From NCBI RefSeq assembly GCF_000003815.2, contig NC_049992.1, positions 10,622,728-10,686,727 on the forward strand: 64,000 bases of DNA, given 5' to 3'. The stretch is from Branchiostoma floridae. Taxonomy: Eukaryota > Chordata > Leptocardii > Amphioxiformes > Branchiostomatidae. Under the pieces are notes generated by a model, which had not been told where the DNA came from, did not search any database, and saw only the letters and a program-made list of their open reading frames with translations. Positions within the stretch are counted from its first letter, which is position 1, and each line of letters begins with the position of its first letter. The position numbers and the translations under genes were made by a program. Positions 12,001-38,400 of the stretch are shown here, one piece after another.

Positions 12001-12471
12001 TTCGATTGCTATATAGAAGACTATAAAGATATGATATGGGTGTTGAAAAAAACAAACATTACGGTACTTTCTCCGGCTACTTTCTTTTCTCTAGACAAAG
12101 TTTTTTTTCGGTATTCATCTGTAGTCTGTGACCAGGAATATAATTGACATGTCAGTTAAAGCTTGGTGCATATTCCATTCCCAATTGCAAGCTCGTTTTC
12201 GAGTAACGTAAGCTGTGCATGTCGTATTTCATAATTGCCCACAAAAAGCCCTTTCCTCACCTTGTACATTTCGTTTCCTCCATGTGTCCCATAAACATTC
12301 ATTATTCAACTCTATGTGTGACGTACTTAGAGTATTCTCATTACTGTCAAATAGATGCTCTCGATTTCGGGCAGCCGTCGGTTGGTTCTTTGTATCTTCT
12401 GTAGCTTGTATTTTCAATTTGCATAACATTTACACGGATTTCTAGATAGTTTCGTTCGTTTAAGCGGACAG
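9011..12471. other. ACTL6A 3' flank and intergenic DNA, no gene recognised
   Basis: About 3.5 kb between the ACTL6A stop and the GPCR start. Open frames here are short, AT-rich and lack any family motif or convincing splice context. Part will be ACTL6A 3' UTR and part GPCR 5' flank; neither border can be placed. A possible polyadenylation signal (AATAAA) is near 10600, which would imply a long UTR and is uncertain. Confidence 0.5.
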
Positions 12472-14683
12472 ATGATCCGGAGAAACGTAACAGGTGCCAT
12501 CGCCCAGGCGGTTCGGGACGTCACGGAAGTGGTCGGAGTCTGCGAAGTCTTGGGTAATGTGACCACGGGTAACAACACCTTGACTGCCGTGGTTTTTGAG
12601 CCGGCCTTCTGTGGTCTGTACGGGGCAGTACCGTCCCTAGCGCCGCTGCTGATTCTGGTCATGGTCTGCTTCCTTCTCCTCTCGCTGTTTGGTAACAGCT
12701 GCCTGGTGGGAGTCATCTTAACTACGGATTACATGAAGGTAAATGTGTACCTTTCCATTCAAACGTCTAGATCTACTACTAGTGTCAGTGTGTCTTCTTC
12801 AAACGTGAGGTGAATGTAACAGCCGAGGTGTGTAGCAATAACAGTCCCGCCCGTGTTATGTTTTTTAAAGGTGGATAAAAGTGTATTTTTGTAGCTTTAG
12901 AAATAATTACAGAAATGTGGACGATTGCACGTAAAAATGGATACTGTAAATCATGTCAAGTGTTGTTAATAAGAACTGCATGGCAAGACTTTGATTTGAT
13001 ACATTATATTCCATCGTCATACCGTTTTAAATAGTAGCCTGATTCATATCATGGCCCATACTGCACACTAAAATGTACGAGCCTGGTTCTGCAGACAGCC
13101 TCTATTTCAGGGGTGCCTAAGCATTTGCACGAACCCTATGAAATTCGTACGAATATTATGTGATACACACGAATCACTATGCGAAAACGCACGAATATTA
13201 TGAAATTCGCACGAATCACTATGCGAAATCGTACGAATTTTATGAAATTCGCACGAATCACTATGTGACACACACGAGCCTTATGTGATTTGCACGATCC
13301 TTATGCAAAAACGGCGGCCGGGAGGAGGCATGATTTTGAGCGTTTCTACCCGAGATATTTATATTTCAAGGCATGGAATGGACATTTACCGTCGCAAAGA
13401 TGTATTTGATAGCCTGTGAGCTACTGTTTAGCTTCATTTCGGCGTGTTACATCGTATTTTCAGTCGGCGAAGCGGCGAAGCCGCCATCTTGAAAATCCCG
13501 CTCCGTTTGTCACGTGACCCCGCCAGTGGTTGCGCAATTTCGCATAAGGATCGTGCAAATCACATAAGGCTCGTGTGTGTCACATAGTGATTCGTGCGAA
13601 TTTCATAAAATTCGTACGATTTCGCATAGTGATTCGTGCGAATTTCATAATATTCGTGCGTTTTCGCATAGTGATTCGTGTGTATCACATAATATTCGTA
13701 CGAATTTCATAGGGATCGTGCAAATGCTTAGGCACCCCTGTATTTGCAAGTTCAAAATACTGTATAGTGATAGGGGGTTTGGACAAGTCCGTAAAATGTC
13801 CGCTTATTACAAAACAACAATGCTAATTCTTATATCATATATCTAGCTCACACCGTCCTACTTTCAGGAACCCGGTAACTACTTCCTCGCCGCCATGGCC
13901 ATCACCGACACATCACTAGCCATGGCCTACAACCCCATAGCGATATACAGTTTAGCACATGGTGAATATCCGGCCGGGCCATGGTGCAGGCTACAGGCCT
14001 TCTTCATCATTTTCCTGTCCATCTTGTCCATTCACTCGCTTCTCTGTGTGTGGATCTGTCGCTACATCCACATCGCATTTCCACTTCACTACAAGAAAGT
14101 CCTGACCCGTCGGCGGATGGTACTAGTCATGTGTCTGTGTGTCCTGATCGCAGTCATCCCCGCCGCCGTAGGAGTGTCTCCTATCCATAGCCTGGCAGTT
14201 GGGGCTGCTGAGGAAGTCCTCAGAGGCTTTGAGAAACCACAGACTTTGATGACACCGTGCTTGGCTGGCCCCGAGGGCCTAAAACTAGCCTTAGTCATCA
14301 ACCTTCTTGCCATGGTAGGTATCGTCTTCCTAGTCAGTCTCATTTACTGCGAGACCAGACGAAGCCAGAAGAAACACGACCAGAAGGTGACGTGGAACGC
14401 CCAGGCTGAAGATCAGGAATCCAAGATGCAGGCGGTCCACACGCTGCTCATCATCGTGTTGGTCAACTGGATCACGTGGCTACCGGCGTTTGTTGTTAGC
14501 GTCTCGATGAAGGCCGGCTCGATATCCCTGGCTACCGCCGCTCCCTGGTGTGACATCACCACCATTGTCCTGCAAAGCGCGACGTTCTCCGACTCTCTCG
14601 TCTACGCGTTTCGCTACCGGATTTACCGTCGGGCGCTCAAGAAAATGTATGAAAATATTCATTCTATTTTCACTAAAACCTAG
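12472..14683 (+). CDS. class A (rhodopsin-family) orphan GPCR, two exons, 360 aa
   Basis: Seven-transmembrane receptor. Exon 1 (12472-12738) encodes an N-terminus with several N-glycosylation sequons (RNVTG, GNVTT, NNTL), TM1 with a GNS motif (SLFGNSCLVG) and the first loop. Exon 2 (13868-14683, phase 0 join at KE) encodes TM2-TM7. TM3 ends CRYIHIAFPLHY, so the DRY aspartate is replaced by Cys. TM6 has NWITWLPAF, a CWxP variant. TM7 has FSDSLVYAFRY where NPxxY is expected. Cysteines at WCRL (top of TM3) and TPCLAG (loop 2) could form the usual disulfide. The short tail is basic. No ligand class can be assigned; lineage-expanded receptors of this sort are common in lancelets. The single intron is filled largely by a foldback transposon. 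Confidence 0.88.
13108..13740. mobile_element. foldback transposon with ~205-bp near-perfect arms (TSD TATTT)
   Basis: The arms 13108-13312 and about 13536-13740 are reverse complements with essentially one visible mismatch. The outer ends are CAGGGGTGCCTAAG, flanked by TATTT on both sides (13103-13107 and 13741-13745). The arms are built of degenerate ~40-bp units around CACGAATCACTATGCGAAA. The centre (13313-13535) is GC-richer and non-coding. It lies in the GPCR intron. Confidence 0.9.
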
Positions 14684-16134: not shown

Positions 16135-19100
16135 ATGGGTGAGTTTACAGACGTTTTCGTCCAAATCTCTAAATGTTCTCGTCCTAAAATGCACAGATTT
16201 ATGTTGCTATAACATAAGCACGCAACCTTTCCTGTTTTTGATTGTGAAAACTTTCCTATGAAAGTACACGGCCCCTTTTTTCTACATTCCTCTAGAGTAA
16301 GGAGGTTAAAGAAACCTTTAACCTCCTTGGTTAGAGTAGACATCATTCCTGCATGCATAAGTATACATGTTTGTTTGGATCTGATCTCTGTTGACTTTTT
16401 GTGATCGCAGAGCTCATACATAATTTCTAACAGACAGTGTTTTACTGTAACAAAATTCCGTAGACGACCTTGCATGGGAACCAACAAACTAGTAGAATGG
16501 GGGTGGCGTAACTTATATCGGTTTTGTTTGATTTTTATAAATACGGTAATTATTAATTAGGAATATCAAGTCGAATGCGGTGGTTTCAAATTATTTTCAA
16601 CTTGTTGCAGTTTAAAACCAGCATCCGTAGAGTCGATATTCCTAATAGTAATACTTTTTTAACGTAACATATATAAATATAGGTTACCCCGAGGATAAAG
16701 GTGAACTAGGCGTTACTTTGGCATTGTTTTGAGCGGCACCGCACCGAGAGCAAGTCTATGCATCTTTACATGTAGGTTTCCAATCGTATTAATAAATCTC
16801 ACTAGTAAGTCCCTGTTTTTTTTCTTTTGTTTTCAGATCACAAACAAAAGCTCGCAAGATTTTGTAGAATTTGTTGGGATTAGATTTTTAGAAAAGGTTA
16901 TAAAGGGTGAGGCTGTGAATACTATGCTATCCGACAAGCTTCAAGATTTTGTTCCACATGGAGACAGTTGCAACATCTGTATGCCAAAGAAACCTGGAAG
17001 GCCAATTAAAAAACACCCAGGGTTGCGAGTGAAATCAGAAGTATCCATGAAGGATGTGCCATTGACATCTAAGCTCTACCCTTGTACACCTGAGCGATCA
17101 ACAGAGCCCTGTGTACCTGAACGATCCACAACAGAGTCCTGTGTACCTGAGAGATGCAAAACAGAGCCCTGTGTACCTGAGCAATCCACAACAGAGTCCT
17201 GTGTACCTGAGCGATCCACAACAGAGCCCTGTGTACCTGAGCGATCCACAACAGAGTCCTCTGAGCGATCCACAACAGAGTCCTGTGTACCTGAGAGATG
17301 CAAAACAGAGCCCTGTGTATCTGAGCGATCCACAACAGAGCGCTGTGTATCTGAGCAATCCACAACAGAGCCCTGTGTACCTGAGCGATCCACAACAGAG
17401 TCCTGTGTACCTGAGAGATGCAAAACAGAGCCCTGTGTACCTGAGCGATCCACAACAGAGCGCTGTGTACCTGAGCGACCCAAAACAGAGTCCTGTGTAC
17501 CTGAGCGATCCACAACAGAGTCCTGTGTACCTGAGAGATGCAAAACAGAGCCCTGTGTACCTGAGCGATCCACAACAGAGCGCTGTGTACCTGAGCGACC
17601 CAAAACAGAGTCCTGTGTACCTGAGCGATCCACAACAGAGCCCTGTGTACCTGAGCGACCCAAAACAGAGTCCTGTGTACCTGAACGATCCACAACTTTA
17701 TATAACGTCTTTGGCATGGGCGAACAATCTGAAGCCAAGCAGGGAAACAAAACTGAACTACCCCAAACCAAAGAACCCACCCTTACCCAACAACCTCAAA
17801 GGAAGGAGCCTACCCTAACCCAACAACCTCAAAAGAAGGAGCCTACCCTGACCAAACAACTTGAAACTATGGAGGTCAGTTTGACCCAACAATCCCAAAC
17901 CATGGGGCCCTACACAACTGAACAACCTCAAACCAATGAGCCGACTGTGACTCAGTGTCAAACAATGGAGGTAATCTTGACTCCACAACCTCAAACCAAT
18001 CATGCCGAGATGCAGACAGTGATGCCCAACATTGCTTCCAAGAAAACCTGTCTGTTTTGCCAGAAGGTGATTACTTGTAGAAATTATCGGTCCATATTTA
18101 GTGAGGCTGTAGTGGAGGTCCATCCACAGATTCAACAGATCTTTAATCTATGGCCTGACAAGGAAGTCTGGACTAGGAAAGGGCTGTCCAACATCGTGTG
18201 CCAGCCTTGTTTTGGAAAGCTGAAGAAGCTTGTCAAGATTGATGAGGAATTGTCAACAATACTACAAAGACTACAAGAAGAGAAACAATCCTTGATAAGG
18301 ATATTACAGAGCAATGCCAAGATACCCACCAGCCTAGAGGATACACCTGTACACACAACTCCTACAGAACCAAAGTCAGCAGGTGTGAAGAGAAAGGGGA
18401 GGGAGAAAACAGAAATTCCTCCAAAAGTGATTAAGAGACATCTAGCCAAATATGTGCCTATTGCTCCAGCTGGGATCCCCTCAGAATTGGAAAAGCGACA
18501 TCTAACAAAATATGTACTAATTGCACCTGCACCAGTACCACCCCCAGCCCCAGACAAAAATATGGCTCCTACTACTAGACTTACTAGTGACAGTTGTATT
18601 CCACTGAAGAATGAGCAGGACAACCTGATACAAGATAGCACTGGCTCGCTAATGGACACAGTTGACACAGCAAAGGTAAATGGCTTTCTTCATTTGATTC
18701 AGACACACAACTTTCAAACTGCATGATTCTTCTTACCATGTCCGAAGGTCTAATAGAATTATGCTTGTTTACCAGGCCTTCATATTGTACATGTATTATA
18801 TAGTTGAAGCAGTGGCTATGGTAAACCAGCATGCATTCGGTTCTAGGGGTATTGATTACAATTGACCTGAGCTGTCATGAAATCAGATACTCCTTCAGCA
18901 TACATGTTTGTCTGACTGTTAAAATAGGGGGGGGGGGGGGGTACCTGTTTGTGTTTGCCCGTAGTGACAATGTTTATAGTGTGTGACAGGATGTGAGGCA
19001 GAAGATGGTGTTAGTGGAGACTGACAGGATGGGAAGGTTGGCTTGGCCTGGGCCTGAGGTCAGTTGTGCAAGCTGGCAGGATGGGATTGGGAGGATTGGC

Positions 19101-20222: not shown

Positions 20223-23200
20223 TTACCTGCTCAAATACATGGTCATCGGAATGGCTGCCGCGATGCTGATGAGGTACACGACAAGACACAGCCTGTCCAG
20301 GACCCTAGCCAACAAAGTGTAGTCGGACACCTCTTCCTCGTTCTTAACTGCCTTGGTCAGCTCATCCATCCCTTTCTTCACCACGACAGTCAGTTCCTCC
20401 ACACTGGAGATCAGGGGAAGAAATCCACGGGAGTCAGCGGACTGAGGATCTGTGAAAGGCTTTGGTGACCGTTTGGTTGTCGCTGGGTCTTTGCTGCTTG
20501 TAGAGTACCACATTTCAGAGGTACTCTCCCCTTCGGACACTTTTGCATCAGTGTTGGAGGAGTAGTTGATCAGCTCTATGGCAGAGTGGATATATGTACG
20601 CTCCTCTGTGAGGTCTCCCAAAAGTAGAAACCTTCACAGACAGTAAAAGAAGGAAAGGGAGAAAGAACATTGTCATCTTTACCATAAAGGGGCATTTTCA
20701 TTGAATTGCATTTTTCATTGCTCCTTGCAAGGTGCTCCTTGGCACCACTCAGGTTTGAAATGTGATGTGTTCGGAATGATACCGACAGTCTTGACACCCG
20801 TTTTATCTCTTCAGGATTAATGTTTAACTTTGGAAGACAGTATAGATAAGGTTTATGTGAACCACTGAGACATTGAGTGATGTACTTTCAGGTTAGTCAT
20901 ATTCATTATAAACATCCACGATGTTGAAATGAAAAGTTCCTACCTTGCCATGTAACGGAGAAGAAAACTTCTCGCCATTGCAGACATTTGTCCCTTCTTG
21001 TCGTGAACAAAGATGATGGCGATGGTGAAGAAGAGGAAGAGCCCCATCAGGCCCATGCACACGATAATCAGCGTGGCTGTGCAAAACAAATGAAGCATTA
21101 CCAGAATGCAGGGGTTTTGCAAGTTCAATCATATGTTGACCCTGTCGGCTTTGTATGGTACTGCAGCAGAACTTTTGGTTTTCATCAGTCTTCAACAAAT
21201 GTTTTAAAAATTGCTTTCTTTCTAAATCATAGATAATCACTAAATATATACTTACCAAAAAATGGCAGAGCCCCCTTGACTGGAATAACGTCTGTAACAA
21301 ACACTAGAGAGACGACCATAGAGAGCTGAATGGTCACTCCAAAGGAGATCCGGTCTCCCTTGTCCATAGGCATGATGAAGGTGATGGTCATCAGCACAAT
21401 CAGGATGATGCAGGGTCCAACAGTGGTGGCGATGTGGAACGTGGGAATCCTGGACAGTTGTAGAGCAAAGCACGCTTCCTTCTTGTCTTTAGTGAAGATC
21501 TTATCCCTTCGATACCATTCTCCCTCCGGTATTGCAGGGGAGTAAGAGCCACAGGGATGGCTTTCCTTGTGTGCATCTGATGGCGAGCTTTCCCCGTGGC
21601 ATTCTGTAATCAATATACAATTGCTGCAGATTACTGTCTCTAGGAGCTTTTTAAAAACATATTGCATATAGGACTTGTGTGCGAAATACTATTGGCGTCT
21701 GAAGATTTGCTCACTCATGCATTGTCTCTGAGAGATATCGATCGTGAGTACTTCCCATTATTAGTACTTACTCTTCAAGCTAAGGCTAGATTGCTAGGAA
21801 AGGGTATAGAGAGTACTTTCATGTAGACTATTGCATCAGCAAAAGTAAAGGAACGTGCTGTGTCGTATAGACAAGCGTATAAGGTTCGTCAAAGTCTTAC
21901 GAATGGTTTGTTCGATCGCTGACGCTGCAGAAAAGCAGATGTGACAATCCATGGTGTCTGCAGGGAAGTAGAAGGGGTCAGCATCACACACGGTTGTGGT
22001 CAGGGTTTCCACTCTCCACTGCACCAGGCCGCTGCTGCTGATGCGGATCGGTATGTCCTTTGGTAGGCCTTGGCGGAGGCGATTAGCACTGGAAGGTAAA
22101 AAAAAAGACATTTATTTTGCATAATGAAAAAGACACAACGTCTTGCCAGAGAGTTTTTGTCTCTTTGGTCCTGCCAATCTTTTTCTCTGAAAAGTTTAAA
22201 CATATATTCTACTGATATGTGCTTTTGATCAGGGTACAGCCGTGTTATGTATGAAAAAAAAATGTTAGGTTGGCGAAATTTTATTGCCTTTTTTGTATTA
22301 TCTGTCTTTGGTTAGTTGTAAAGAAATCGTGACACCTACTTCCTCTTCAGGGTAAATGATGGAGTCCAAATATCGTCACCAGGGACACTGAGCGTCTGGA
22401 CACCACCGTAGTGCCGCGGGTTCCATTTCAGTCGACTGTCGTGCCATGACTAGGAAAGATAGATGTCTTTTTGTGCGATACCGAATGGAAAATTGCAATA
22501 AAAAGATCTACTGATCATTGCAATCCAAATGAACGTGACCGAAAGCGGCCTCAGAGATACGAAGCCTGTGCAAACTTACGAGGATGATGATCATAGAGGC
22601 GATAAGCCGCTCCTTCTTTTCATCCTGAAATAAAAATGATAGCTGTTATTAAAGCTGTGATGCATGTTTCTCCTACATATTCAAAGTGTATTTGTTGACA
22701 ATTAGAAAAGACAAGGATTTCTATTTCAGATAGTACGTACCAAGTCGACGATTTCCTCCACATCCCCCGTGAAGTTGATGGTAACATTTTCAGGCGCCAG
22801 ACCAGCACTGTAGGCCTCTAGCAGCTCCTTTCGCAGCTTTTGCTTCTGGTTGACTGAATGTATAAAAGATACATATTAGTGAGTTGTTAGAAAGAGATTT
22901 TGATGATCTGTGTCTATCAAAGGCTGTGTACAATTAGCAAGTGTAAATTTTACAAAGACTCCGTACGTAGCAATCACCTAGGCAAACGGGCTTGTCATAT
23001 TCCCAGGTTCCTCCTTCAAGGCAAGTCGCTTCTCTCGGGGAGCCGTACTCAGGCGTGTAGCCATCGTTGCACGTGTACGTGACCTTCTCTTCTAAGAAGT
23101 AGAACCTCTTACTGGGAGTTCTCTTGCCGTAGTTTGGAGGACCTCTGTCCCAACAGCCAACAAAATCTAAGCGTAGTAAGATATACAAAATACATGGTCA

Positions 23201-26200
23201 AAATCATCGTGTAGCTGTATTGAGTTTTGTGATATTCGATATGCTTCAAGAAGTCAGCAACACACCATTCCCATGACGTAAGTGTTTTGAAACATCTTAG
23301 CTAAACTATGTTTACGTTTATGAAGATATCCATCCACGTGAACAATATTCAAATGCAATCTATTTCTATAGCTGGATAAAAACGGAGATTTACTTCCAGA
23401 CGTTTCGAGTGACATCCATCACTATTCTTCAGTGTCACTTATCTACTAAGAATGGATTAAATGGTTCTAGTGACGCTGGAGATGAGTGATGGATGTCACT
23501 CGAAACGTCCAGAAGGAAATCTCCGTTTTTATCCAGTTGTAGAGATTGAATTGTATTTGAATAAAGTACGTTTAGTGTAGATCACCTACTACCGTTTATG
23601 AACAGACAACTTACTGCACGGAATGACGTCACATTCCTCCTGGCTACCGTCTCCAGTCAAACAAAATGGCCGTTGGATTCCGGTCGGGTTGCGGCAGTAG
23701 TTCCTGTCCAGGTTAGCCCAGGGGTACTCGGCCGTGTAGTAATCCGCTTGCCCAGCTGACCACTGAAGGCAAGCTGCCCCGGACGCCGTTTTACTCCATG
23801 TTCCAAGGTAGTTCATGCCAATGCCGTGGTAGCAGACTGAGGAAAAGAAAAAAATCATTAATTTACCTAGTTTTCTTTAAAGAAATTCTGAATAAATGGC
23901 CTATTTTATGAACGTTTTGTAACGACCATGAGATGCCACTGAATTGTCCCCGCACACAGTATGAGCAACTCTGCAATAGGTAAAGTTGATGTAGTTTTTA
24001 AAAAGTGAAAAAGATATGATATATAATCAAAATGTAATATGAAGCTCTGATTCCCACCTTCCGTGCCGATAACATCTGGTTCCGGGTTCCAACAGCCGTG
24101 CTGTGATGACGGGAACACATCACATGGCGGCAGCAGGTCCCTCATCAGATCATCACTCATAGTCATACTGAACACTTCCTCACACCAAGAGCGGCACGGC
24201 AGAAGTTGTGTACCACTGTTATACAAAAAACCCAACTAAATTCAGTACCACATGATAAACATGTTTGAGTGCTACCACTACAAGACATTTTTGACTACCG
24301 TGCATACAAGTCTGTACGATTAAGCCATATGGTAAAAGTTTTTAGTCTATTAGAAGCACTTCTTATGAATAAATGTAAGCATCAATGACTGTTGGTCAAT
24401 ATTGGAAACTTCCTAAATGAAGAGCAGATACTCTACGTATAGCCTCCTTCGCAGACTTTGAGCGGGACTGGCTGGTTCGTGATTTTCGAGGTGGGGCGAA
24501 ACACTCTTTCATGGAAAAATCTCCCTTTTTCGGAAAACTCCCTTTCCCGGTATTAGAAAACCTTAGTCAACGTTGAAAATCGCGAACCAGTTTCGCTCGA
24601 AGGAGACGAAAAAGGCTACCATACGTATTGAGAATGAATCATATTGTACTCCAATAGACGTATTGGCTACTCACACACATGAGGTCGTGGTGTTTGAAGG
24701 CGGGCGCAAAGAACACTGGGACATGTCTTCTTCAGGAACGTTGCATCGTGGGAAAATGGCGATAGACAGGAATTCTCGTAACTGCGGATGGTGTTCTCCC
24801 TGGACGCTGTTGGAATTGTGGAGAAGTTCCACGACAGAGGAATTCTGTATATCATCGAATGTCGTCTGGTTCAGTGGATTTGGTAACATTGTGAGTCTGC
24901 TGCCGAGCTGGAAAATCTCCGGGATGTGGAAGCAACCTATAAATTGAAGAACAAAAAAGAAATGGCTTTCAGTATACATGTCTTTGAGGGCAACGTAAGA
25001 AGTTTTCACTGGTGAAATAAGGATGCAAACTTTATTGTCGGTAAATATTCCCGTGTTCTTATATGTCAGCTAATTTTTTTTATGGTGGTGACACCAACTT
25101 ACCACAATTTTCCTCGTCACTCTTGTCCGAACAGTCTGCGGTTCCATCACAGCGCTTCCATGACAGGATACAAGAATATCCTTCTCCACAGCGGAAGTAT
25201 CCAAGGTCGCAATTGACTTTCTCTGCATGGAAAAATCAACAGTTCGTAAATTGTGTTGTTCGTATTCGTAGCTTTCAATCTCTCGCGCTGATGAGAATGG
25301 AATATTTTCCGTTTCTAGTAGTTTTTTACTTCTCCAAAGAAGCATATGTGTCTAAGAAAGTAATCAAAAAAACAAACAGACTTTTTGGATAACATGTACT
25401 CAATCCCTCCATAGGTCTATGTCTGGTATACGTATATATTTAGTTCTCATGATCTTTGCTTGCAAGCTTTTGTTCTTATATGAATGTTAGAAGGCAAGTT
25501 CTTATCGAAGATGGTCACAACACAAAGATTACCTCTGACTCCGTACAGCTCCACTTCCCGAACCCACGGCTGATACCCTGACCATGTGCGGGAGATGAGG
25601 AGTCGCCAGTACCGCGCCGTGGCCCGGAAGCCGCCGTACTCCTGTCTTGCGTCGGTTCCCGCTTCCACGTCAGTGACGGTCGTGACGTCTACCCAGACGT
25701 ACGTCGGGTCTCCGGTCAACGACTTCTGGAGGCTGAAATCCTTGATGTCGTGCGTGGTGTCTCCAATATGGCTGATTCCGATACGGGAGAGTGTGTAGCG
25801 TGCGGTGAGATCAAGCACGAAGTTCCATTGGTTGTAATACTGAGGAACTCCGGAAGGATTCCAGTAGCTGTAGGTGTTTCCGTCCAGGGCGTTGCCGGGA
25901 CCTGTTGTCCCGGAATAACCAACAACCCATGACACATCTCGTGTTAGCCAATCAGCTGTGGAGGAGGCGTGGATCAATTATCAAACATTTATGCAGTAAC
26001 GATTGCAGGCATATAATTCATTTCATGTTCGTTAGAAGTTATTTAGCATTGCCAGCTAAAAGCATGAAACCACTTTTGAAATTTCATGTTTATTCGGTCT
26101 TTAGGAGCAATGGAAAACATACGTACATATATGATTATAAGCATTCCTTCTTCTTTAAGAATGGGTGAAATATACTTGATGTAATGAATTTCTGTGTGGT

Positions 26201-27223
26201 TATACATAATGAACCATGTTTTACCTACTCTTAATAATGTTTGATACATTGACATGGAATCTTCCCCGGTTACTTAACGGATGGAATGTGCTTAAGTAAA
26301 GTTTTACAGTGTACTGTTGTCTAATGTCGTCTCTGCCTCTGGGTATTATTTGTACTTAGTGTTGAAAATTAATTGCTGTAATATTTCATGTTTCAAGCTG
26401 CCATATTTGTAGCTATCCTATTTCTGTCGACACACCCAATGGAGTTGATTATTGCTTTGCATTGGGTGTGTCCGTCTGGGCGATATAATTATTCTGATGA
26501 TTATATTCGAGACCAAATTATCAGCAGCAAAATATACACAAATAAAAATCATGTCAGAATTTTGGCAGATATACAAACAAACGGTGCCGTGAAAGAAAAT
26601 CGAAACACACTAACATATTTGAGACAAGGAAACTGATACTCAAACGCCCATTATATTTGAGTGTGATATTTGAGTTAAAGGGCAAGGTGTGTAATTTTGT
26701 TTTGGGGATGGAGCGAGGGTGTTGTAGCATCTGTGTTAAGGAAATAAGCAGTAAGAACAACAAGAGACCATCTGTGCATTGGCTATAAAACAGGTGTGTG
26801 CAATAGATTTTGATTTTGCGTGCGCTCTCTATCATTTTGAGCATGCTAGCACAAAAAGATAATTCATATATGTACATGTATAGATATTGAGATCATCAGA
26901 TAATTATAATGGCACTTACCTCTCACGATCATATGATTATAATTTTGTGTGTTAGTGCATGTGTGTGTGTGGTTGTGTGTGTGGTTGTGTGTGTGTGTGT
27001 GTGGGGGGGGGGGGATTGTGTGTATTTGTGTGGTTGTGTGTGTCTGTGTGTGGTTGTATGTGGTTGTGTGTGTTGTGTGTGTGTATCTGTGTGTGTGTGT
27101 GTTTGTGTGTGTTTGTGTGTGTATGTTTGTGTGTGCCTGTGTGTGTGTCCTGTCTATACCGCCCTTACCTGAGACAAACAGCAGACAGCAGGTGACCACA
27201 ACGATGACAAGTTGGCCTCTCAT
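20223..27223 (-). CDS. modular Cys-loop receptor: discoidin-LDLa-Frizzled-kringle-sushi-ligand-gated ion channel, 924 aa
   Basis: Exons 5' to 3': 27169-27223, 25533-25955, 25103-25222, 24675-24936, 24058-24215, 23615-23836, 22978-23166, 22741-22853, 22580-22624, 22340-22449, 21901-22088, 21256-21603, 20944-21076, 20223-20631. All borders are GT-AG, every phase matches and the total is 2775 nt. Residues 1-18 are a signal peptide (MRGQLVIVVVTCCLLFVS). Approximate domains: F5/8C 19-159; LDLa 160-199 (six Cys, CDGTADCSDKSDEENC); FZ-CRD 200-339; kringle 340-413 (YLGTWSKTASG, CRNPTG); sushi 414-476; channel 477-924. The channel has the 13-residue Cys-loop (CDADPFYFPADTMDC), WTPSF, GEW, four membrane spans and an M2 starting GDRISFGVTIQLS. 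Asp at -1', Leu at 9' and absence of the anion-type PAR motif suggest a cation pore. No vicinal CysCys is present in loop C, so a classic nicotinic alpha role is unlikely. The M3-M4 loop is ~100 aa. Ligand unknown. Confidence 0.93.
23347..23566. mobile_element. foldback element with ~75-bp arms and CGAAACGT core, copy 1
   Basis: Left arm 23347-23425 and right arm about 23480-23566 are inverted repeats containing CTGGATAAAAACGGAGATTT. Each arm has GTGACATCCATCAC next to the CGAAACGT motif. It lies in the intron between the sushi and kringle exons of the channel gene. A shorter relative is at 52908-53018. Confidence 0.8.
24425..24618. repeat. imperfect inverted repeat in the FZ intron/exon region
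   Basis: TAGCCTCCTTCG...GGTTCGTGATTTTC near the left is mirrored by GAAAATCGCGAACCAG...CGAAGGAGACG on the right. This is a probable decayed MITE in the intron splitting the Frizzled domain, ending just before the 24675 exon border. Confidence 0.5.
26949..27150 (+). repeat. (TG)n-rich microsatellite with poly-G
   Basis: Imperfect GTGTGTGT with interspersed GGTTGT and a G run at about 27002-27013, immediately inside the first intron of the channel gene and within 20 bp of the signal-peptide exon donor. The reverse strand therefore reads CA-rich. Confidence 0.9.
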
Positions 27224-30200
27224 ACCTCAGCAGTCGTACCCAGCCCAAATGCGCCTATGATGTGCACCTTTGCTGAATGTGATAAAGGTGAGGCCTCCTG
27301 TACAGAAGACCTTACTCAGTAGCTCCTATTCCACACAGGCACTTTTCTTCCTTATAATTATTTCCATCCAACACAAACAGTTCTAGGCAGCCGGCCACAT
27401 GTCAGGTAGGGGCTTTAGACTGTCCCAAACTGCGGAACAGCTAACTGTTTTTCGTCTATTAAATTCTACAGGTGTTCCGAGTGAAAGATTACGTGACCCA
27501 GACACACGGCATCAATTATTTAACGTTCCTCATCATATTTCTATTACTTTCATAATGATGCATATGATTACAAGTCCATCTAGCTAAAGCGAGAATACAA
27601 CTTATAATTGGGTTTGTCATTACTCGATATAAAGATGTATGTCGTCACTTTGAAAAAAAAGTGAAGCAGTCACTCAAGTCTTCTGTGTAACGTACAATAA
27701 AAGAGCTAATCAAGTTAATGGTAACTTTCATTAACAGCCCTTTAAATATTGATATTATATTACTAAAGGTTTGCCATTATACCATTCACGCTAGTCTGAC
27801 GTTATTATCAAATTGTCTCGTGGTCTCTTAATGGTGGTTTATTACACAGTCTAAACAACCTAAAATATGCACATTCCGACTTTCCATAGTAACAGTGGCA
27901 AGTGAATTTCACACAATTTCACCATTACATTATACCTGCCTGCCTAAGTGCTTAGGCCAGGGACTGGCCCCTTGCCCCTTATATAGATACATTATAACAT
28001 ACATAATTGTCATGAATAAATCGAACACTGCTCTTTGATCTGCATTCAACGTTACAAACTAAAAATATCCGCATGAATAAGTTCTGATGGATAGCATATA
28101 ACTTTTTCCATAAATCACCAGTTTTATCACATAGCATAACGTTATGTGTTGTTTATAACAGCTCGAGACCGGATGAACACGACTTAAGCAAGTAAGCATA
28201 ACGTTATAGTTGGCCGTCAATTTGCTTTCCATGCTCTTATTTTGGCATTTTCAAATTGTTAATATCAAAACATCAACTTCTACACTAACGCCCACGAAGT
28301 CTTGTTCTTTCAGTCCACAGCCCAATCAAATGATTCCCCCGTGCGCTCAAGGTTATATTGCACCTACTCGTAATTAACACACATAAGCAATTGAAATTGC
28401 ATGTTGAAAGAAGAACTATACCTATTGATTGATAAACGGGACCATTACATTTATTTAACACCTTCTTGTTTCAGAAGTACCTCCAATTGAATGTGGAAAA
28501 GAACGTGTACACTTACAGGCATGTACAGTTAGAGTTAGTTCTGTTGTTGAATTGTGTGTACGTGTCATTTATGACGCAATATTTCATCATTTTGTTCCTG
28601 AGATGGCTTACACATACGTATTCTTGATTCTAAATGTTGCATTTGTGAAAACAAGGACACATAAGTCCTAAACATTCGAACCCCCTTTCGAGTCTTTCGC
28701 GATTTCCCCATTCCCGAAAAGACGGAAATTGGCAATTTTGACGGTCGTTTTAACCACTTTTCTGAACGCGGCCGGGAGTGGTACTGCAGATTGGGCTATG
28801 ATAGGGTACGTGGTCCTGACTTGTGAAATGTCAAAAGATACAGGACATTAAGCTTAAAGCTGGTAAAAACTCTCCCAAAAAGGCCCAGACATCTTTACAT
28901 AATTCTAGAATGACGGTCAAGACATTAGTCGGCGTAAAAAGGGTTGATTTTAGGTCCGCCCGGGGAGTCCATGTAACGCCAATAACACCCGCCGAAGCGC
29001 CCCCTTCATTCATGTACAACATCATATCCGGTACGTAATGAATATGTTAAAGATATACTAGTATCTCGCCATGGATGACCGTTTTACCTTCGGCCTCTTA
29101 CTCATATATCCATCTGCTTATATATATGTGACAAGATACTGTCAGAGAAGCCCTGCCACCCAGAAGACATATTAACTATCTTTCATATATCAACTTCTGC
29201 TTGGAGACATCCACTTTGCAATGACAACGTTGGTCTTTTAGCTGACCGTTCACCCATTTACAAAATGAACATCTGGACGCCAGACCACAGAATGATATGA
29301 CAAGGAGGTATACGGTCATAGCCACAACCTTCTCCCTGGTGATAGATCACTAAGAGAAGATTCATTGTTATCCCTTGGCCATGAAAAAAATGGAGGTATA
29401 ATTGCTGTCAAATATGTATGTGTGGGGGTTTGTTTGTGTTCCTGGATATTTGATGACATCTGATTACAATGATATTTGGTATATGTAGGTAATTCTTGGG
29501 AAGGCGAAGGTGAGGGTTGCTTACAGGTCTCCTGGCATCTGGCCTTGGTGCTGAAGCAGAACTTCCAACATGAACTAAATTTCTTTTTCATTCAATGACC
29601 TTTTATACGCTTTGGTCGTGTAAAAACTTCAATCTATTTGAAAGTAATTTTCGATATTTAGTAAATTACTATCATCTTAATCACAAAAGAACTCATTCAA
29701 ATTGCTGGGTTTTAAAATTAAACAGTTTATTTCATGTTTGCCATATGCAGTGGGATTTCCACAACTCTTACCTATGTAACCTTCTATATAAAATTTCATC
29801 TACAAAAATGTAGGTCTAACCTTAAAGTTTGTATGTATACATTAGAAAACCTTGAATACTTCAACAGTGTTAAACTTTACACCAAATACTCTATAGTGGT
29901 AACGTTACTTCAGAAAAGTCTGAAGTTATGATACAGAAAAATTAAATAGTCAAACTGATGATGATTGTGAACACGAAAAAGGAAAAACCCTGTTGCTACA
30001 AAAACAGAATGATGCACTCATTCAATGAAAACTAGCGTATTTTTCTTTCTTAAGTAATAACCACAACTACTTAAATGAGAAAATGTCTTAAGTACACAAA
30101 ATATACTTCAATATATCTGTCATGGGTAAACTTGGAGCATCGATTATGTACATTTTGACAATGTAATTCATTGCACAACAAGATTGTATATTTGCGGTAA

Positions 30201-32438
30201 TAGGAATATACATGTACTACAATGTAATACCTTATCAACAACCTACATCTATTTGTACTGTTCAGCACTCAAAGTTTTTTTTTATTACGTTGCAAAGCAG
30301 CATTTGTTGCAAGTATTCACCGTTTCTGCATTTCTAAAACTCTTGCTTGTTAGAGCATACAGTATAATGTTTCACAGACCTCTACATCAAGCACTGCTCT
30401 CTGGAACCAGCCTATGATGGCAATACATGAGAAAGAAACAAAACATGCCTGGATATAGCATGGCTAAGACAATAATTGTTTTAGGCAGGGGCATCCACAA
30501 TGTACCTCAATGTACTTGCTGAATGATGAAAAAACAAAGAACTTGATGAGACGTAAAACAAAAGGAAATCATACACAACCAGCAATGAAGACGGAAACTT
30601 TATGATAATGAGACTTTTTCACTTTGATGTCTTATGATGAATCTTTCAGAACCGGAGAAGTTGCTGTGATTACCATATTATCATGTCTATTGCTTATCTA
30701 TCAATGTATTTTCCTCATATCTTTTTTTGCTGTGTTTTACAATACATCATTCTACAAAACCATCTATAGATTTGTACTTCCATATGCCCCTATAGCCTTA
30801 AAAAAATTCTTACAACTGCACAGAGCTTCCCTAAACCACACAATGGTTTGTCTCTATCAAACCTTAACATGAACCCTACATAGTAATCTTCATAGTAACC
30901 AAGAGAAGTTAACATCCTGCACCAAGAGAACAACTGGAGGTTCCACAGGAACAATAAGGTACAAACGTACATGTGACCACTAAAGACTCCATAGAATGTT
31001 GTATTCACAGTCCTTTCTACAAATCACAGAATCCTGTGTAACTCAAGGGGCAAGTGACATTGCTATGACAATGCATATGGAGCAAATATCTACTGCATCT
31101 GGTACTGTATCAGTTGTCATGACAATGTCTTTTTCCCACGCACTGTGTTACCAAAAGTTCTCCAGTTTTGCTAGCATGTGAAGGGATCCAGATTAAGATC
31201 TATTCACAAGTTTCCATAGCTCCGTCTACCTCAAACAAAACATTAGAAATGTAAAACAAAACTTAACAAAAGAAGACACCCCTACTGGTGAACTTCTAAT
31301 CATGATAAGCGGTCTCGGAACGGTCTTGAGCATCCTTTTAAAGTAAAATAATGATAAACTAAAAGGAGAAAAAACTACAAATTTCTTGATGAGCACACTC
31401 CATCAACAAATGGAAGTTTCTATTGCAAAAGCAGACTTATCAACTTTCTAACTACTGTTGGACAGTAGTAGAAATCTACAGAGCTTGTATATGAGAGTAC
31501 CACAGTCTATAACATTATGTACAACATGTATCATCTTGAACATTTTCATGATTGTAACAGTTTCAATACCTTATTACATAATGAAACTTCTATAAACTCT
31601 TGGTATATTTTGTGATGAAACTTTAATTTGTTAATGGTGATTAGTGCATAACTTTATGTATTAGTTTTTTTCCTCTTTGATGAATTATCTTTAATTGAGA
31701 GTTTTCATTTTTTTAACAATGAAAAATTACAAGCATGAAATGGAACCGTCCAATCCCCAATAAAGTAATTCTCACTAATTTCCATACTACCCTTATAATG
31801 CCTTAATTAACACAGCAAGTAAATGTTACAGATGACATCAGCAAGCTCATTAATTTTTGCCTGATTTTGAAGAAAAAAAGAAACAAGAATTTTTTTCCCT
31901 CAAGATGGTGAACATGACGAGAAAGTACCAAAATGGGAAATATAGTGTGTGGTAGCCTTGATTGTACTAGTCTTGTAGAAGTGACACTAGTGAGGAACAT
32001 GTAGCCAAGATCATAGTAACTGTTGTAGAAGTGAAAATAGTTAAATTATAATAGAACTGACACCAATGTGGTAGCTTTACTATAGTTGTCTACCACACAT
32101 ATATAGTGTTACTTAGTGCACCTCTTGAATCTTGTTTTGTTAATATTTGTTACCAAAAACTCCCTTGTTGTTACATTGTTTAATCTTTTAAGGTGTCTAC
32201 TTTGAAATTCCAGATATCTTATTTTTTGCCTTCTCTCGTCAAATTTGGAGTCTGCAGAATGTCATCCATAAAATTTACTTGTTTTTGGCCTAAGGAATAA
32301 AACACAACTCCTACAAATGTACGCAGAGAATGGTTACTAATCAATTATACCAGATATGGACTGATAGGGACTAATAGACTTTCAATACAAGGGTGACTGG
32401 ACAGCAGCGGTTATATGTGGAATGCTGGACTAATGCCA
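27224..32438. other. 5.2-kb intergenic region, no gene recognised
   Basis: This lies upstream of the channel gene (minus) and downstream of GOLIM4 (minus). It is AT-rich, the frames are short and no family motif is seen. It contains the second copy of the AGGCCACAGC-type transposon (31808-32292) and presumably GOLIM4 3' UTR next to 32438. A GC-richer patch at about 28740-29030 was inspected and gave no convincing coding or RNA signal. Confidence 0.5.
31808..32292. mobile_element. non-autonomous DNA transposon, copy 2 of the 1787-2289 family
   Basis: The left end CACAGCAAGTAAATGTTACAG...GATGACATC and the right end GTCATCCATAAAATTTACTT match the termini at 1787 and 2289, more diverged. The interior also shares CTCATTAATTTTYGCCTGATTT. 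It is intergenic, just beyond the GOLIM4 stop. Confidence 0.75.
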
Positions 32439-35400: not shown

Positions 35401-38400
35401 AGAAAATTAGAAGCTACATGTACCTCACCACGTCTAATCGTGGTACTCTTCAGAAGCTGCATGTGTCCGTACCTGATCTAGAAGTTGTCTGTGTCCGTAC
35501 CTGATCTAGAAGTTGCCTGTGACAGTACCTGATCTAGAAGTTGCCTGTGACAGTACCTGATCTAGAAGTTGCCTGTGACAGTACCTGATCTAGAAGTTGC
35601 CTGTGACAGTACCTGATCTAGAAGTTGCCTGTGACAGTACCTGATCTAGAAGTTGCCTGTGACAGTACCTGATCTAGAAGTTGCCTGTGACAGTACCTGA
35701 TCTAGAAGTTGCCTGTGACAGTAACTGATCTAGAAGTTTCATGTGTCAGTACCTGATCTAGAAGTTGTCTGTGTCAGTACCTGATCTAGAAGTTGTCTGT
35801 GTCAGTACCTGATCTAGAAGTTTCATGTGTCAGTACCTGATCTAGAAGTTTCATGTGTCAGTACCTGATCTATAAGTTGTCTGTATCAGTACCTGATCTA
35901 GAAGTTTCATGTGTCAGTACCTGATCTAGAAGTTGTCTGTGTCAGTACCTGATCTAGAAGTTGTCTGTGTCAGTACCTGATCTAGAAGTTTCATGTGTCA
36001 GTACCTGATCTAGAAATTTCATGTGTCAGTACCTGATCTAGAAGTTTCATGTGTCAGTACCTGATCTAGAAGTTGTCTGTGACAGTACCTGATCTAGAAC
36101 TTTGCCATCCTCATTCTTTTCCTCATCATCATCCTCATTCCCAGCGTCCAGTGGGTGATGCAGGTTGCCATCAGCCTGCACCTGGTTCCCTTCATCCACC
36201 TGATGCAGCTGCAGCTGCTTGTCTGGGTCGACTCCAAGTGGTTGTAACCTGTCCCCCCCTGCCAGCAGTTGGTCTGCTCCGTCCTGCTGGTCACCTGCGA
36301 GCTGCTGACCAATGAAGTTTGATCTTCCTCGCATACTCTGTGATGAAAAATATGACATAACTAATAAGTTGTTTTATCAGAACAAAATAGTCACAGGCAC
36401 ACAACAAGTGATATGTCATTGAAGACATTGTCCATCATCTTTTGCCTCATGATCATTTTGGATATGTCTAATGCAAAATTCCTGTTCATATTATTGTTTT
36501 AGGGTGACATCCACCCCACGCATGTCATACATAGTTCCAAAAATAAGAAGTTAAAGTTAATCCAAATGTAAGGTTTTTTATCAGGTTAGGCGATTCTCAC
36601 TCAATCAACAGGCATGTCAGCAACTGAAACATTCAGAAAAAAACAGAAAACCATAGAGGATGTAACAAAAAAAAGGTTCTTCTTTGATGACCAAATGGTT
36701 AGAATACAGGATAGATGAAATAAGATGCCAGGAGATGAGAGATGTTAAAAAAGGTACAATAGTGCCTTACCTGAATGCCATCCTGGTCATCTAGGTCCTT
36801 TCCATCCCCATTCCCCACCTTTCCCACTTGATACTCGTCTGGCAAGGCAACAGGAGACAATTTGAAAATACAACTAAGTATTCAACATGTGCTGTAAATG
36901 CATTTAAGTTTGTGGGGATTTACTTTTGCAGTAGCAGGAAAATGGAGTATTTTCATTTGTGGTAGCGCCATAGACTGTAGTCACATACTATAATGGAAAA
37001 TGTTCTAGGTGGTTTTAAGTTCGCGGTGAAGTGGCCACTGCAAACAACTACTGTGAATATTTCTGCATTTATACAGTATCTACTTCACACCTGAGGTGTT
37101 GTAAAAAAAAAAGAGAGAAAAACAAGTTCTTGTCACTTATGGTGTATGGATACATGTGCAACAGTTAGGTGTGAACAGGTCATTCTGTCTTATGCATGAA
37201 GGGTAGTGATACAACATTGGCCAGCTAGATATCAATGTTCATCATACATCATATTCAATGTCATAACTCATATTAACAATATGTATAAAAATAGAACATA
37301 CCTTGGTGTATAATTTGATTGTCATCATTGTCTTTCTTGTCTCCTAGCTTGTCTTTCTGGATGGCATTTTCATCTGGCAATCCCTGGAAAAGAAAAGTTC
37401 ATGACTTTAATTTGTATCATGTCTAAATTCCACTGCTACATTGTAGCTGATGCTGAAAAAACTTTGTTTAACTGGCAAAAATTTCCTTTTCTGCAACACA
37501 TGTTTGTCATGTAAGAAACACATATATTTGTCATGTAAGAAACTCTGTTAGTGGTCAAGACAAATATAGAAAATAAAAATATAAAACGCTTGTTCACCTT
37601 TATCCGTTGGGTAACCTATATCCGTTGCTTTTAAAAACGGTATTTGGGGATATCACGTCGACAGACGTAGGTTTCAAATTGCAATATTTTTAGTATATTG
37701 CTGTTTAAAACTACCACCTGTCGGCTTGATGTGCTACATACCCTGTTTTTAAAAACAATGGATATAGGTTACCCCGTGAATAAAGGTAAACTAAATTTTA
37801 AATTAATCGTTAGTCAATATCAAATTGATAGGGTACAGACTACTCCAGAGTAGGAAAAAGTGCCCACCAAGCCACCCCTGAACTGGTTCTGTAGCTCCTG
37901 TCGTCTCTTCTGAGCCTCCAGAAGTTGTTTGTGTGTCTCGTCCAGCCCAGGGTGCAGCCCCCCTCCCACCTCCAGGTCATCCCCACCTGCACCTGGCACC
38001 TGCACAAACAATGGCTGCTGTGCACCTGGCTGATCAGCGGTCTCCTGGAAGATAACACGCAGCCATTGTTAATTATGTTATAATTTAATCAACTTTCATG
38101 GGGATTACTTCGATGAAGGTTAGACATCCAGGTAATAAGATAATGTAAATGCATTTAAATTTGTGGAAATTTAATTTCACGGCAGTGGGGAAAATGGAGT
38201 GATCGCAGTGGTTTTAAGTTCAAAGTAGCGCCATAGACAGCAGTCTCATAGTATTACCATAATGGAAAATGTTTGCGGGGTTTTAAGTTCGCAGTGAAGT
38301 GGTCACCGTGAAAACCAGGAACATAAAACCACAGAATGAATATTTCTGCATTTATAGTATGCCAAAAAAAAACAGTTCGTCAAGCAACAGGACATAATTT

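What the first reader, a model, noticed from the sequence alone, without database searches (positions are those of the whole stretch)
20223..27223. A single chain joins discoidin, LDLa, Frizzled-CRD, kringle and sushi modules to a complete Cys-loop channel
Seen: 14 exons with matching phases give one 924-aa open frame from signal peptide through five extracellular modules to a pore with Cys-loop, M1-M4 and a terminal stop. Known: FZ-kringle pairs occur in MuSK/ROR kinases that organise acetylcholine receptors; nematode AChR clustering uses separate proteins with LDLa/CUB (LEV-10) and sushi (LEV-9) modules. Inference: here the clustering or Wnt/lipid-sensing modules are covalently part of the receptor, which could make a self-scaffolding or morphogen-gated channel. 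I know of no vertebrate counterpart.
Basis: partly seen in the sequence, partly recalled or inferred. Interest (0 to 1): 0.93.

Follow-up and report, generated by a model that had tools for sequence, protein, structure and literature searches.

The report
Ion channels with modular extracellular arms
A lancelet-like animal genome carries dozens of nerve-receptor-type ion channel genes in which the channel is joined, in one predicted protein, to a long chain of adhesion and recognition modules, and the outermost modules differ between several of the genes, which hints at a large undescribed family of surface sensors.

Summary
Fourteen GT-AG exons (minus strand, 27223 to 20223) give one 924-aa chain: signal peptide, F5/8C (discoidin/galactose-binding-like), LDLa, Fz-like CRD, kringle, sushi, then a Cys-loop channel. 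It is not a one-off. The window's own genome is held, and about 65 channel loci there look like one family. 63 of 65 have this kind of kringle upstream on the same strand, against 0 of 61 weaker channel hits (the cut was mine). In 19 of 19 fetched paralogs with both exons, sushi and channel meet at the same phase-1 splice sites. Modules and channel evolve under constraint where tested. Fz-kringle-sushi-channel, usually with LDLa, is the core. The tip varies: F5/8C, C-type lectin, EGF-like, SRCR, extra kringle or sushi. None of 12 aligned members has the acetylcholine aromatic box, while Cys-loop and key pore residues are kept. Best reading: orphan, probably cation-selective channels for contact recognition (glycans, microbes, particles, matrix). 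AChR self-clustering and Wnt gating are poorly supported. The architecture is near certain; the function is inferred.

The parts
27169..27223 (-). Exon 1: start codon and signal peptide (55 bp, ends in phase 1)
   Evidence: only signal-peptide-like candidate in 30500..22854; 55-bp homologue with the same phase-1 donor in two paralogs, L031 and L032
25533..25955 (-). Exon 2: F5/8 type C (discoidin / galactose-binding-like) module, the tip of this gene; phase 1-1
   Evidence: 150 matches listed in the genome, a capped number
25103..25222 (-). Exon 3: LDLa module, phase 1-1
24675..24936 (-). Exon 4: first part of Fz-like CRD (phase 1 to 2)
   Evidence: remote paralogs 67.0 and 58.4 bits to Pfam Fz
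24058..24215 (-). Exon 5: second part of Fz-like CRD (phase 2 to 1)
23615..23836 (-). Exon 6: kringle, phase 1-1
22978..23166 (-). Exon 7: sushi/CCP module, phase 1-1
   Evidence: same acceptor and donor positions in 19 of 19 paralogs where it was found
22854..22977 (-). Intron 7 (124 bp) between sushi and channel: no A[AT]TAAA signal and no signal-peptide-like exon
   Evidence: in 19 paralog introns none reached the cut-off of 2.0, the best being 1.96 in L020
22741..22853 (-). Exon 8: start of ligand-binding-type domain
   Evidence: acceptor at the same position in 19 of 19 paralogs
22580..22624 (-). Exon 9: 45 bp of the ligand-binding-type domain
22340..22449 (-). Exon 10: 110 bp of the ligand-binding-type domain
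21901..22088 (-). Exon 11: Cys-loop (C600-C614); loop-B Trp replaced by Ala
21256..21603 (-). Exon 12: end of extracellular domain, M1, M2
20944..21076 (-). Exon 13: M3
20223..20631 (-). Exon 14: intracellular loop, M4 and stop codon

Best explanation
SHOWN in the sequence: the gene encodes one chain in which a Cys-loop channel subunit carries an N-terminal arm of F5/8C, LDLa, Fz, kringle and sushi modules. It belongs to a family of about 65 loci in this genome with a conserved core (usually LDLa, then Fz, kringle, sushi, channel) and a tip that differs between the members examined. INFERRED: the subunit assembles into a pentamer with a cation-selective pore (Asp at -1', Leu at 9') that is not opened by acetylcholine at the usual site. 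The core makes a spacer running into the first helix of the channel domain, and the tip binds glycans or other surface ligands on microbes, food particles, cells or matrix. Binding or clustering of the arms then gates or positions the channel. Family expansion with different tips gives a repertoire of contact sensors, either chemosensory or immune.
For: One chain. Family: 63 of 65 loci with a kringle upstream on the same strand, against 0 of 61 weaker channel hits (60 of 62 if the cut is put at E 5.1e-20); Fz upstream in 41 of 42 close members, this gene included. Junction: sushi acceptor and donor and channel acceptor at the same in-phase position in 19 of 19; no exon above the signal-peptide cut-off in 19 of 19 sushi-channel introns. 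Constraint: dN/dS of Fz, kringle and sushi 0.10 to 0.47 in 20 of 21 comparisons that gave a value, one 0.97 (nine chosen pairs). Shared history: kringle+sushi distances correlate with channel distances, r 0.65 and 0.69, permutation p 0.0002. Variable tips: Lectin_C 4.9e-22, SRCR 3.1e-12, kringle 1.1e-26, sushi 1.3e-12, FXa_inhibition/EGF-like 1.9e-12, F5_F8_type_C_2. The 14 best C-type lectin matches to one tip (60% identity or more) all lie 0.7 to 2.9 kb upstream of a family Fz exon. Orthosteric site lost, pore residues kept: 12 of 12.
Against: No transcript, expression site, ligand, current or structure. F5/8C and other tip modules also serve in adhesion and coagulation, so a tip need not mean sensing. 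The tip is known for a minority of loci, and its joining to the core is inferred from distance, strand and phase; the phase test (19 of 23) is lax, and the SRCR piece of L021 lies over 4 kb from its core. LDLa was seen in 11 of 14 fetched loci covered there, and not in L009, L010 and L011. The 10 kb upstream of L011 (L033) showed no module of the set searched. Tip dN/dS is also below 1 (0.16 to 0.48), so there is no sign of rapid ligand-driven change. Loop C is poorly alignable, so Y188 and Y195 assignments are less sure than the rest.
Confidence: 0.42

Rival explanations
1. Adhesive or anchoring accessory subunit: the arm ties the channel to matrix or to a partner cell, and a partner subunit supplies ligand binding. 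This is, without acetylcholine.
For: Extracellular CCP and CUB proteins cluster receptors in worms and flies (PMC9083331 passages). The channel lacks the aromatic box on both faces, as expected of a subunit that does not bind the transmitter.
Against: About 65 loci with differing tips is a large repertoire for an anchor. The worm parallel depends on CUB and CCP, and the LDLa there is dispensable.
Confidence: 0.3
2. Splice-optional arm: all five module units are phase 1-1, so exon 1 could splice straight to exon 8 and give an ordinary-sized channel, with the arm present only in some tissues.
For: Exons 2, 3, 4+5, 6, 7 and 8 all start in phase 1 and exon 1 ends in phase 1.
Against: Constraint on the modules is similar to that on the channel in the pairs tested. 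Symmetric phases are also simply the mark of exon shuffling (PMC4284660 passages).
Confidence: 0.15
3. Morphogen-gated channel: Wnt or a lipid bound by the Fz module, with LDLa and kringle help, controls the pore.
For: An Fz module is present in the core; the two remote paralogs examined keep a good Fz match.
Against: In this gene the Fz is diverged (20.6 bits against a cut-off of 32.1) and by alignment lacks some of the usual cysteines. The variable part is the tip, not the Fz.
Confidence: 0.06
4. Gene-prediction chimera of a secreted mosaic protein and a separate channel gene.
For: Lancelet fusions are often annotation errors (PMC4967905 section 12; PMC6071037 abstract and section 3.3). One paralog intron (L020) holds a borderline hydrophobic ATG exon, 1.96 against a cut-off of 2.0.
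Against: The same order and junction recur at dispersed loci. In this gene no start, signal peptide or A[AT]TAAA signal lies between the parts. A homologous first exon lies far 5' of the modules in two paralogs.
Confidence: 0.02

Closest known systems
Nicotinic acetylcholine receptor / 5-HT3 branch of Cys-loop receptors
   Same: LBD and TM profiles, Cys-loop with 13 residues between the cysteines, cation-type M2, M4; best PDB sequence matches are AChR beta, alpha-7 and 5-HT3A; 26% identity to human alpha-7 over 292 aligned positions. Exon lengths of 45 and 110 bp match those I recall for nAChR genes.
   Different: A modular arm of about 450 residues sits between signal peptide and channel; none of Y93, W149, Y188, Y195, W55 and no vicinal cysteines. 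One ordinary channel locus of the same genome (L034) keeps an aligned loop-A Tyr and loop-B Trp and showed no such modules in 10 kb.
Amphioxus-specific nAChR expansions (nine genes beside CHRNB2/4/5, four CHRNA1-like; PMC6354393 passages)
   Same: Lineage-specific amphioxus expansion of nAChR-type genes is already in print
   Different: The passages mention no extra modules; I could not tell whether any of those genes belongs to this family
MuSK / ROR receptor kinases
   Same: Fz followed by kringle
   Different: No kinase and no Ig; the kringle scores better against plasminogen-type kringles than ROR; the effector is a channel
LEV-9 / LEV-10 / Hig receptor-clustering proteins
   Same: Sushi (LEV-9, Hig) and LDLa (LEV-10) modules outside a Cys-loop channel (PMC9083331 passages)
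   Different: Separate proteins there, one chain here; no CUB; LDLa is dispensable in LEV-10
Octopus chemotactile receptors (recalled; the papers were not held)
   Same: Expanded nAChR-derived channels that lost the acetylcholine site and sense surface-bound molecules
   Different: As I recall they have no modular arm; here recognition-type modules are added outside the channel domain
Lancelet multi-lectin APEC proteins (fucolectin, C-type lectins, CUB, APEC; PMC12373286 passages)
   Same: Fucolectin and C-type lectin modules at the N-terminus
   Different: Described as secretory pattern-recognition proteins, not channels
Branchiostoma-specific architecture with Neur_chan_memb, 269420_PRF0 (PMC4967905 section 12)
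   Same: A novel lancelet architecture holding a Cys-loop membrane domain
   Different: Its other domains are in a supplement I could not open; identity with this family is unknown

Membership tests
Cys-loop (pentameric ligand-gated) receptor superfamily | Ligand-binding-type domain with two Cys separated by 13 residues, plus four TM segments | tested here: met
   Pfam PF02931 and PF02932 above cut-off; C600 and C614, both kept in 12 of 12 aligned members
Cys-loop (pentameric ligand-gated) receptor superfamily | Forms a pentameric pore | not testable with these tools
   Needs expression; -1' Asp and 9' Leu in 12 of 12
Acetylcholine-binding nAChR | Aromatic box (Y93, W149, Y188, Y195, W55) | tested here: not met
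   K, A, D, K, I in this gene; no aromatic at any of the five positions in 12 members
Acetylcholine-binding nAChR | Vicinal Cys pair in loop C of alpha subunits | tested here: not met
   I-F here; no Cys at these positions in 12 of 12
nAChR gene structure | Short signal-peptide exon, then 45-bp and 110-bp exons at fixed places | tested here: inconclusive
   Lengths 55, 45 and 110 bp here and paralog splice sites agree, but the vertebrate lengths are recalled; the search for a source found none. PMC6354393 says introns 1-3 are shared by all vertebrate nAChR genes (passages)
Fz (frizzled CRD) domain | Pfam Fz above cut-off | tested here: not met
   This gene 20.6 bits against 32.1; the module at the same place in two remote paralogs 67.0 and 58.4 bits, so I read it as Fz by descent but diverged
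MuSK/ROR | Tyrosine kinase domain after Fz-kringle | tested here: not met
   A channel follows; no kinase among the Pfam matches
LEV-10-like clustering protein | CUB domains | tested here: not met
   No CUB match in the 924-aa chain at E<=1
Pattern-recognition receptor | Binds microbial glycans and triggers a response | not testable with these tools
   Lectin-type tips in several paralogs; this gene has an F5/8C tip

The most novel reading that the evidence does not exclude
Chordates contain a class of pattern-recognition ion channels: a repertoire of about 65 Cys-loop channels whose acetylcholine site was abandoned and whose recognition was moved to interchangeable lectin-like tips on a common LDLa-Fz-kringle-sushi stalk, so that contact with a microbe, particle or neighbouring cell is turned directly into a cation current.
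Probability: 0.3. Interest if true: 0.96.

Novelty: new variant of a known kind. Interest (0 to 1): 0.87.

Why it matters
Cys-loop receptors are textbook transmitter channels whose extracellular part is a single domain. A large chordate family in which a conserved stalk and differing recognition-type modules are built into the subunit would change what this fold is known to do, and gives a natural system to ask how force or binding on a distant arm reaches a pore. It also shows that at least one lancelet domain fusion, of a kind often suspected to be annotation error, recurs coherently across dozens of loci and is under constraint where tested. Whether the family is sensory, immune or adhesive can be tested directly by expression mapping and glycan binding.

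Tried and rejected
Gene-fusion artefact: rejected. A paralog inside the window: none with a significant match. A unique invention: rejected. Acetylcholine receptor proper: rejected. Fz assignment: doubtful from this gene alone. phmmer of the segment against the PDB gave nothing at E<=10. Pairwise alignment to Fz8 was weak: 9 of 2000 shuffles reached the score. The remote paralogs settled it for me. The statement that some Fz cysteines are missing is my reading of the local alignment (by eye four of ten, which would be two whole disulfide pairs, pairing recalled); the global alignment of the same call does not place the last cysteines well.

One search translated exon 14 in the wrong frame. The window's discoidin matches many discoidins elsewhere (55-62%) better than those of its two C4 paralogs (51-53%), and pS between them is about 0.65 against 0.21-0.48 for the core. 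This suggests tip exchange, but I did not test it with a tree. Literature: ten searches (two were on side questions). By titles and starts of abstracts none describes a Cys-loop channel joined to these modules; subscription papers and supplements were out of reach.

Counts and drops. All genome counts are lower bounds, since the search scores a capped number of candidates (94 of 504, 150 of 168); 43 Fz first-half rows of 88 rows, and 58 channel rows of 102 (one M1-M2 exon per locus). Two Fz rows had no listed channel (C5:4746166, C8:9517017). None of 16 remote channels had an Fz at that threshold within the rows used, but Fz pieces were found in both remote loci fetched. One search used 68 of 150 kringle rows; 21 of 150 discoidin rows, picked by eye, were given; 8 of 43 Fz rows had one within 12 kb; 26 of 150 C-type lectin rows were given (the best, with five similar-scoring rows left out); 16 of 26 lie within 6 kb upstream of a family Fz; 126 of 135 channel rows (nine second pieces dropped) and all 150 kringle rows. 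I put the cut at row 65 knowing where the kringles were; E-values there run on without a gap (2.2e-14, then 3.1e-14). Down to E 5.1e-20 it is 60 of 62. The two loci without a kringle are C16:2345465 and C4:18898464. Same-strand kringles downstream and opposite-strand kringles within 30 kb: 7 and 5 for the 65, 1 and 0 for the 61. Of the 61 weaker hits I opened one (L034); 20 loci fetched; L025 showed only channel exons, and its upstream reads largely N. Sites that did not fall exactly in place are listed there (for example LDLa acceptor 3 of 11, FZ1 donor 11 of 15, CH8 donor 16 of 19, CH12 acceptor 13 of 20); 11 of 20 loci gave a complete kringle-to-M3 chain. Seven of the 65 loci lie on small contigs (C230, C256, C221) and may be alternative haplotypes; L012 and L013 are nearly identical.
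Full report
WHAT IS THERE. Exon 1 codes for a signal peptide and ends in phase 1. Exons 2 (F5/8C), 3 (LDLa), 4+5 (Fz-like), 6 (kringle) and 7 (sushi) are phase 1-1 units. Exon 8, the start of the channel domain, also begins in phase 1. Pfam supports every module above its own cut-off except the Fz, which reaches only 20.6 bits when its segment is scanned alone; F5/8C passes its cut-offs only when scanned alone. The channel part has a full ligand-binding-type domain and TM region. Its best PDB sequence matches are AChR beta, alpha-7 and 5-HT3A, at 26% identity to human alpha-7 over 292 positions.

ONE GENE OR TWO. Six ATG candidates with a good phase-1 donor were found between 30500 and 22854. 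Only exon 1 has a signal-peptide-like core (mean hydropathy 3.27; next best 0.98). Intron 7, between sushi and channel, is 124 bp with no A[AT]TAAA signal. Exons are GC-rich (0.525) against introns (0.363).

THE FAMILY. The window's own genome is held: 513 Mb in 431 contigs, not named. Its size fits a Branchiostoma floridae assembly as I recall it. The channel part has 102 exon matches there, a capped number. In a search with a remote member's M1-M2 exon I used 126 of 135 rows. The first 65 have a kringle of this type upstream on the same strand within 30 kb in 63 cases (median distance 4.2 kb). The other 61, weaker channel hits, have none. The cut at 65 is mine and was made with the kringles known; at a stricter E of 5.1e-20 it is 60 of 62. 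Of 42 close members (63% identity or more over that exon, this gene included) 41 have this Fz exon upstream, most within 12 kb and two at 26 and 29 kb. Fifty-eight of the 65 lie on contigs C1-C19, spread over 16 of them with 13 on C16; the seven on small contigs may be alternative haplotypes.

THE JUNCTION IS CONSERVED. Twenty paralog loci were fetched. In the 19 where sushi and the first channel exon were found, the sushi acceptor, sushi donor and channel acceptor all sit exactly where this gene predicts, in phase (chance about 1 in 16 each), and no aligned exon piece holds a stop. None of the 19 sushi-channel introns (16.7 kb in all) holds a first exon above my signal-peptide cut-off of 2.0; the nearest is 1.96, in L020. 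Two of the nearest paralogs, both on C4, have a homologous 55-bp signal-peptide exon with a phase-1 donor about 6 kb upstream of their C-type lectin and F5/8C exons. Nine chosen paralog pairs give dN/dS of 0.10-0.47 for Fz, kringle and sushi in 20 of 21 comparisons with a value, the exception being one kringle pair at 0.97 with few changes; the channel parts give 0 to 0.42. Distances among kringle+sushi track distances among channel parts (r 0.65 and 0.69, p 0.0002, 16 and 14 members). The core has therefore travelled as a unit. This answers, for this family, the caution of Banyai and Patthy about lancelet fusions (PMC4967905 section 12, read; PMC6071037 abstract and section 3.3, read).

TWO BRANCHES AND THE Fz. 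Two remote members (L029, L030; about 50% identity) have LDLa, Fz, kringle, sushi and channel in the same order. Their Fz modules, joined by me at approximate exon ends, score 58.4 and 67.0 bits, well above the cut-off. I read the module in this gene as their homologue, diverged. By alignment it lacks cysteines at positions that pair with each other in classical Fz domains (pairing recalled; the alignment is weak). LDLa was found in 11 of the 14 close loci whose stretch before the Fz was covered and readable, and not in L009, L010 and L011.

THE TIP VARIES. Upstream of the core, paralogs carry a C-type lectin (L017, L019, L021, L022, L027; a piece in L015; and the C4 pair together with F5/8C), an F5/8C module of two exons that looks fucolectin-like to me (L012, L013, L018; one exon in L015), an extra kringle (L012-L014), an extra sushi (L027), EGF-like modules (L017, L019, L021; below cut-off in L026), or an SRCR piece at the edge of the stretch, over 4 kb from the core (L021). 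Nineteen of 23 tip exons tested have both a phase-1 acceptor and donor within reach, a lax test. The 14 best relatives of one lectin tip in the genome all lie just upstream of a family Fz exon. The 10 kb upstream of L011 showed none of the modules searched (L033). The F5/8C of this window has 150 or more relatives in the genome, and many elsewhere match it better than those of its C4 paralogs, so tips may have been exchanged. Whether every tip is in the same transcript as its core is inferred from distance, strand and phase.

CHANNEL PROPERTIES. In this gene and 11 paralogs with a complete kringle-to-M3 chain, the Cys-loop cysteines, Asp at -1' and Leu at 9' are kept in 12 of 12. None has an aromatic residue at any of the five acetylcholine-box positions, and none has the vicinal cysteines (loop C is the least certain part of the alignment). 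One ordinary channel locus of the same genome (L034) keeps an aligned Tyr (loop A) and Trp (loop B) and shows no such modules in 10 kb. The channel is therefore a Cys-loop receptor with a cation-type pore that should not bind acetylcholine in the classical way.

HOW IT MOST LIKELY WORKS (inferred). The N-terminus of a Cys-loop subunit is at the top of the pentamer (established knowledge), so each arm points away from the membrane; about five residues separate the last sushi cysteine (C475) from the first residue aligned to the alpha-7 helix (481). A repertoire of about 65 loci with a constant stalk and differing, often lectin-like tips is most simply a set of contact sensors for glycans or surfaces, immune or chemosensory. 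An anchoring role is the main rival. The worm clustering parallel is weak because the LDLa of LEV-10 is dispensable (PMC9083331 passages). Lancelets shuffle 1-1 exons unusually often (PMC4284660 passages). Channel activity and C-type lectin domains are among enriched terms in lancelet dispensable genes (PMC12373286 passages), but I cannot tell whether this family is meant. Octopus chemotactile receptors are the nearest functional analogy, recalled only (searches found no text).

NOVELTY. Searches for amphioxus, Cys-loop and kringle (0 papers), Neur_chan_LBD and kringle and Branchiostoma with acetylcholine receptor, kringle and C-type lectin (none relevant by title and start of abstract) show no description of this family in the open library. 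In print already: an amphioxus-specific nAChR expansion of nine genes (PMC6354393 passages) and one unexplained Branchiostoma architecture with a Cys-loop membrane domain (PMC4967905 section 12); either could overlap with this family. The pore is a known kind; the architecture and the repertoire look new.

Noticed in passing
window 13847-14680 (+): Open frame with a rhodopsin-type GPCR match (7tm_1, 9.2e-20); an upstream piece may lie at 12427-12810.
   Followed up: partly
window 16705-18726 (+): 673-residue open frame with about 20 copies of a 30-bp unit (17088-17696) and no Pfam match at E<=0.01; all three minus-strand frames are also largely open across the repeat.
   Followed up: partly
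window 50978-54911 (-): Several open pieces with EGF-like sequence, perhaps one multi-EGF gene; one piece checked with Pfam.
   Followed up: partly
window 35452-36099 and 46104-46479: Minisatellites: 28 bp x 23 copies and 64 bp x 6 copies.
   Followed up: no
window about 44.5-44.7 kb: Run of N (assembly gap) seen in the frame translations.
   Followed up: no
G000 contig C10, about 21.0-23.8 Mb: Dense array of C-type lectin exons among the 150 best matches to one tip.
   Followed up: no
G000:C5:4746166 and C8:9517017 (with kringles at C5:4747391, C8:9518649): Fz and kringle of this family with no channel exon in the list: broken copies, unscored channels or stalks used elsewhere.
   Followed up: no
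L027:41-2942 (gene orientation): Repeated pairs of unidentified open pieces (VFDYTAMSADVTAWE... and VQVSVIRATFQLYFSRHLASL...) upstream of the sushi and lectin tip.
   Followed up: no
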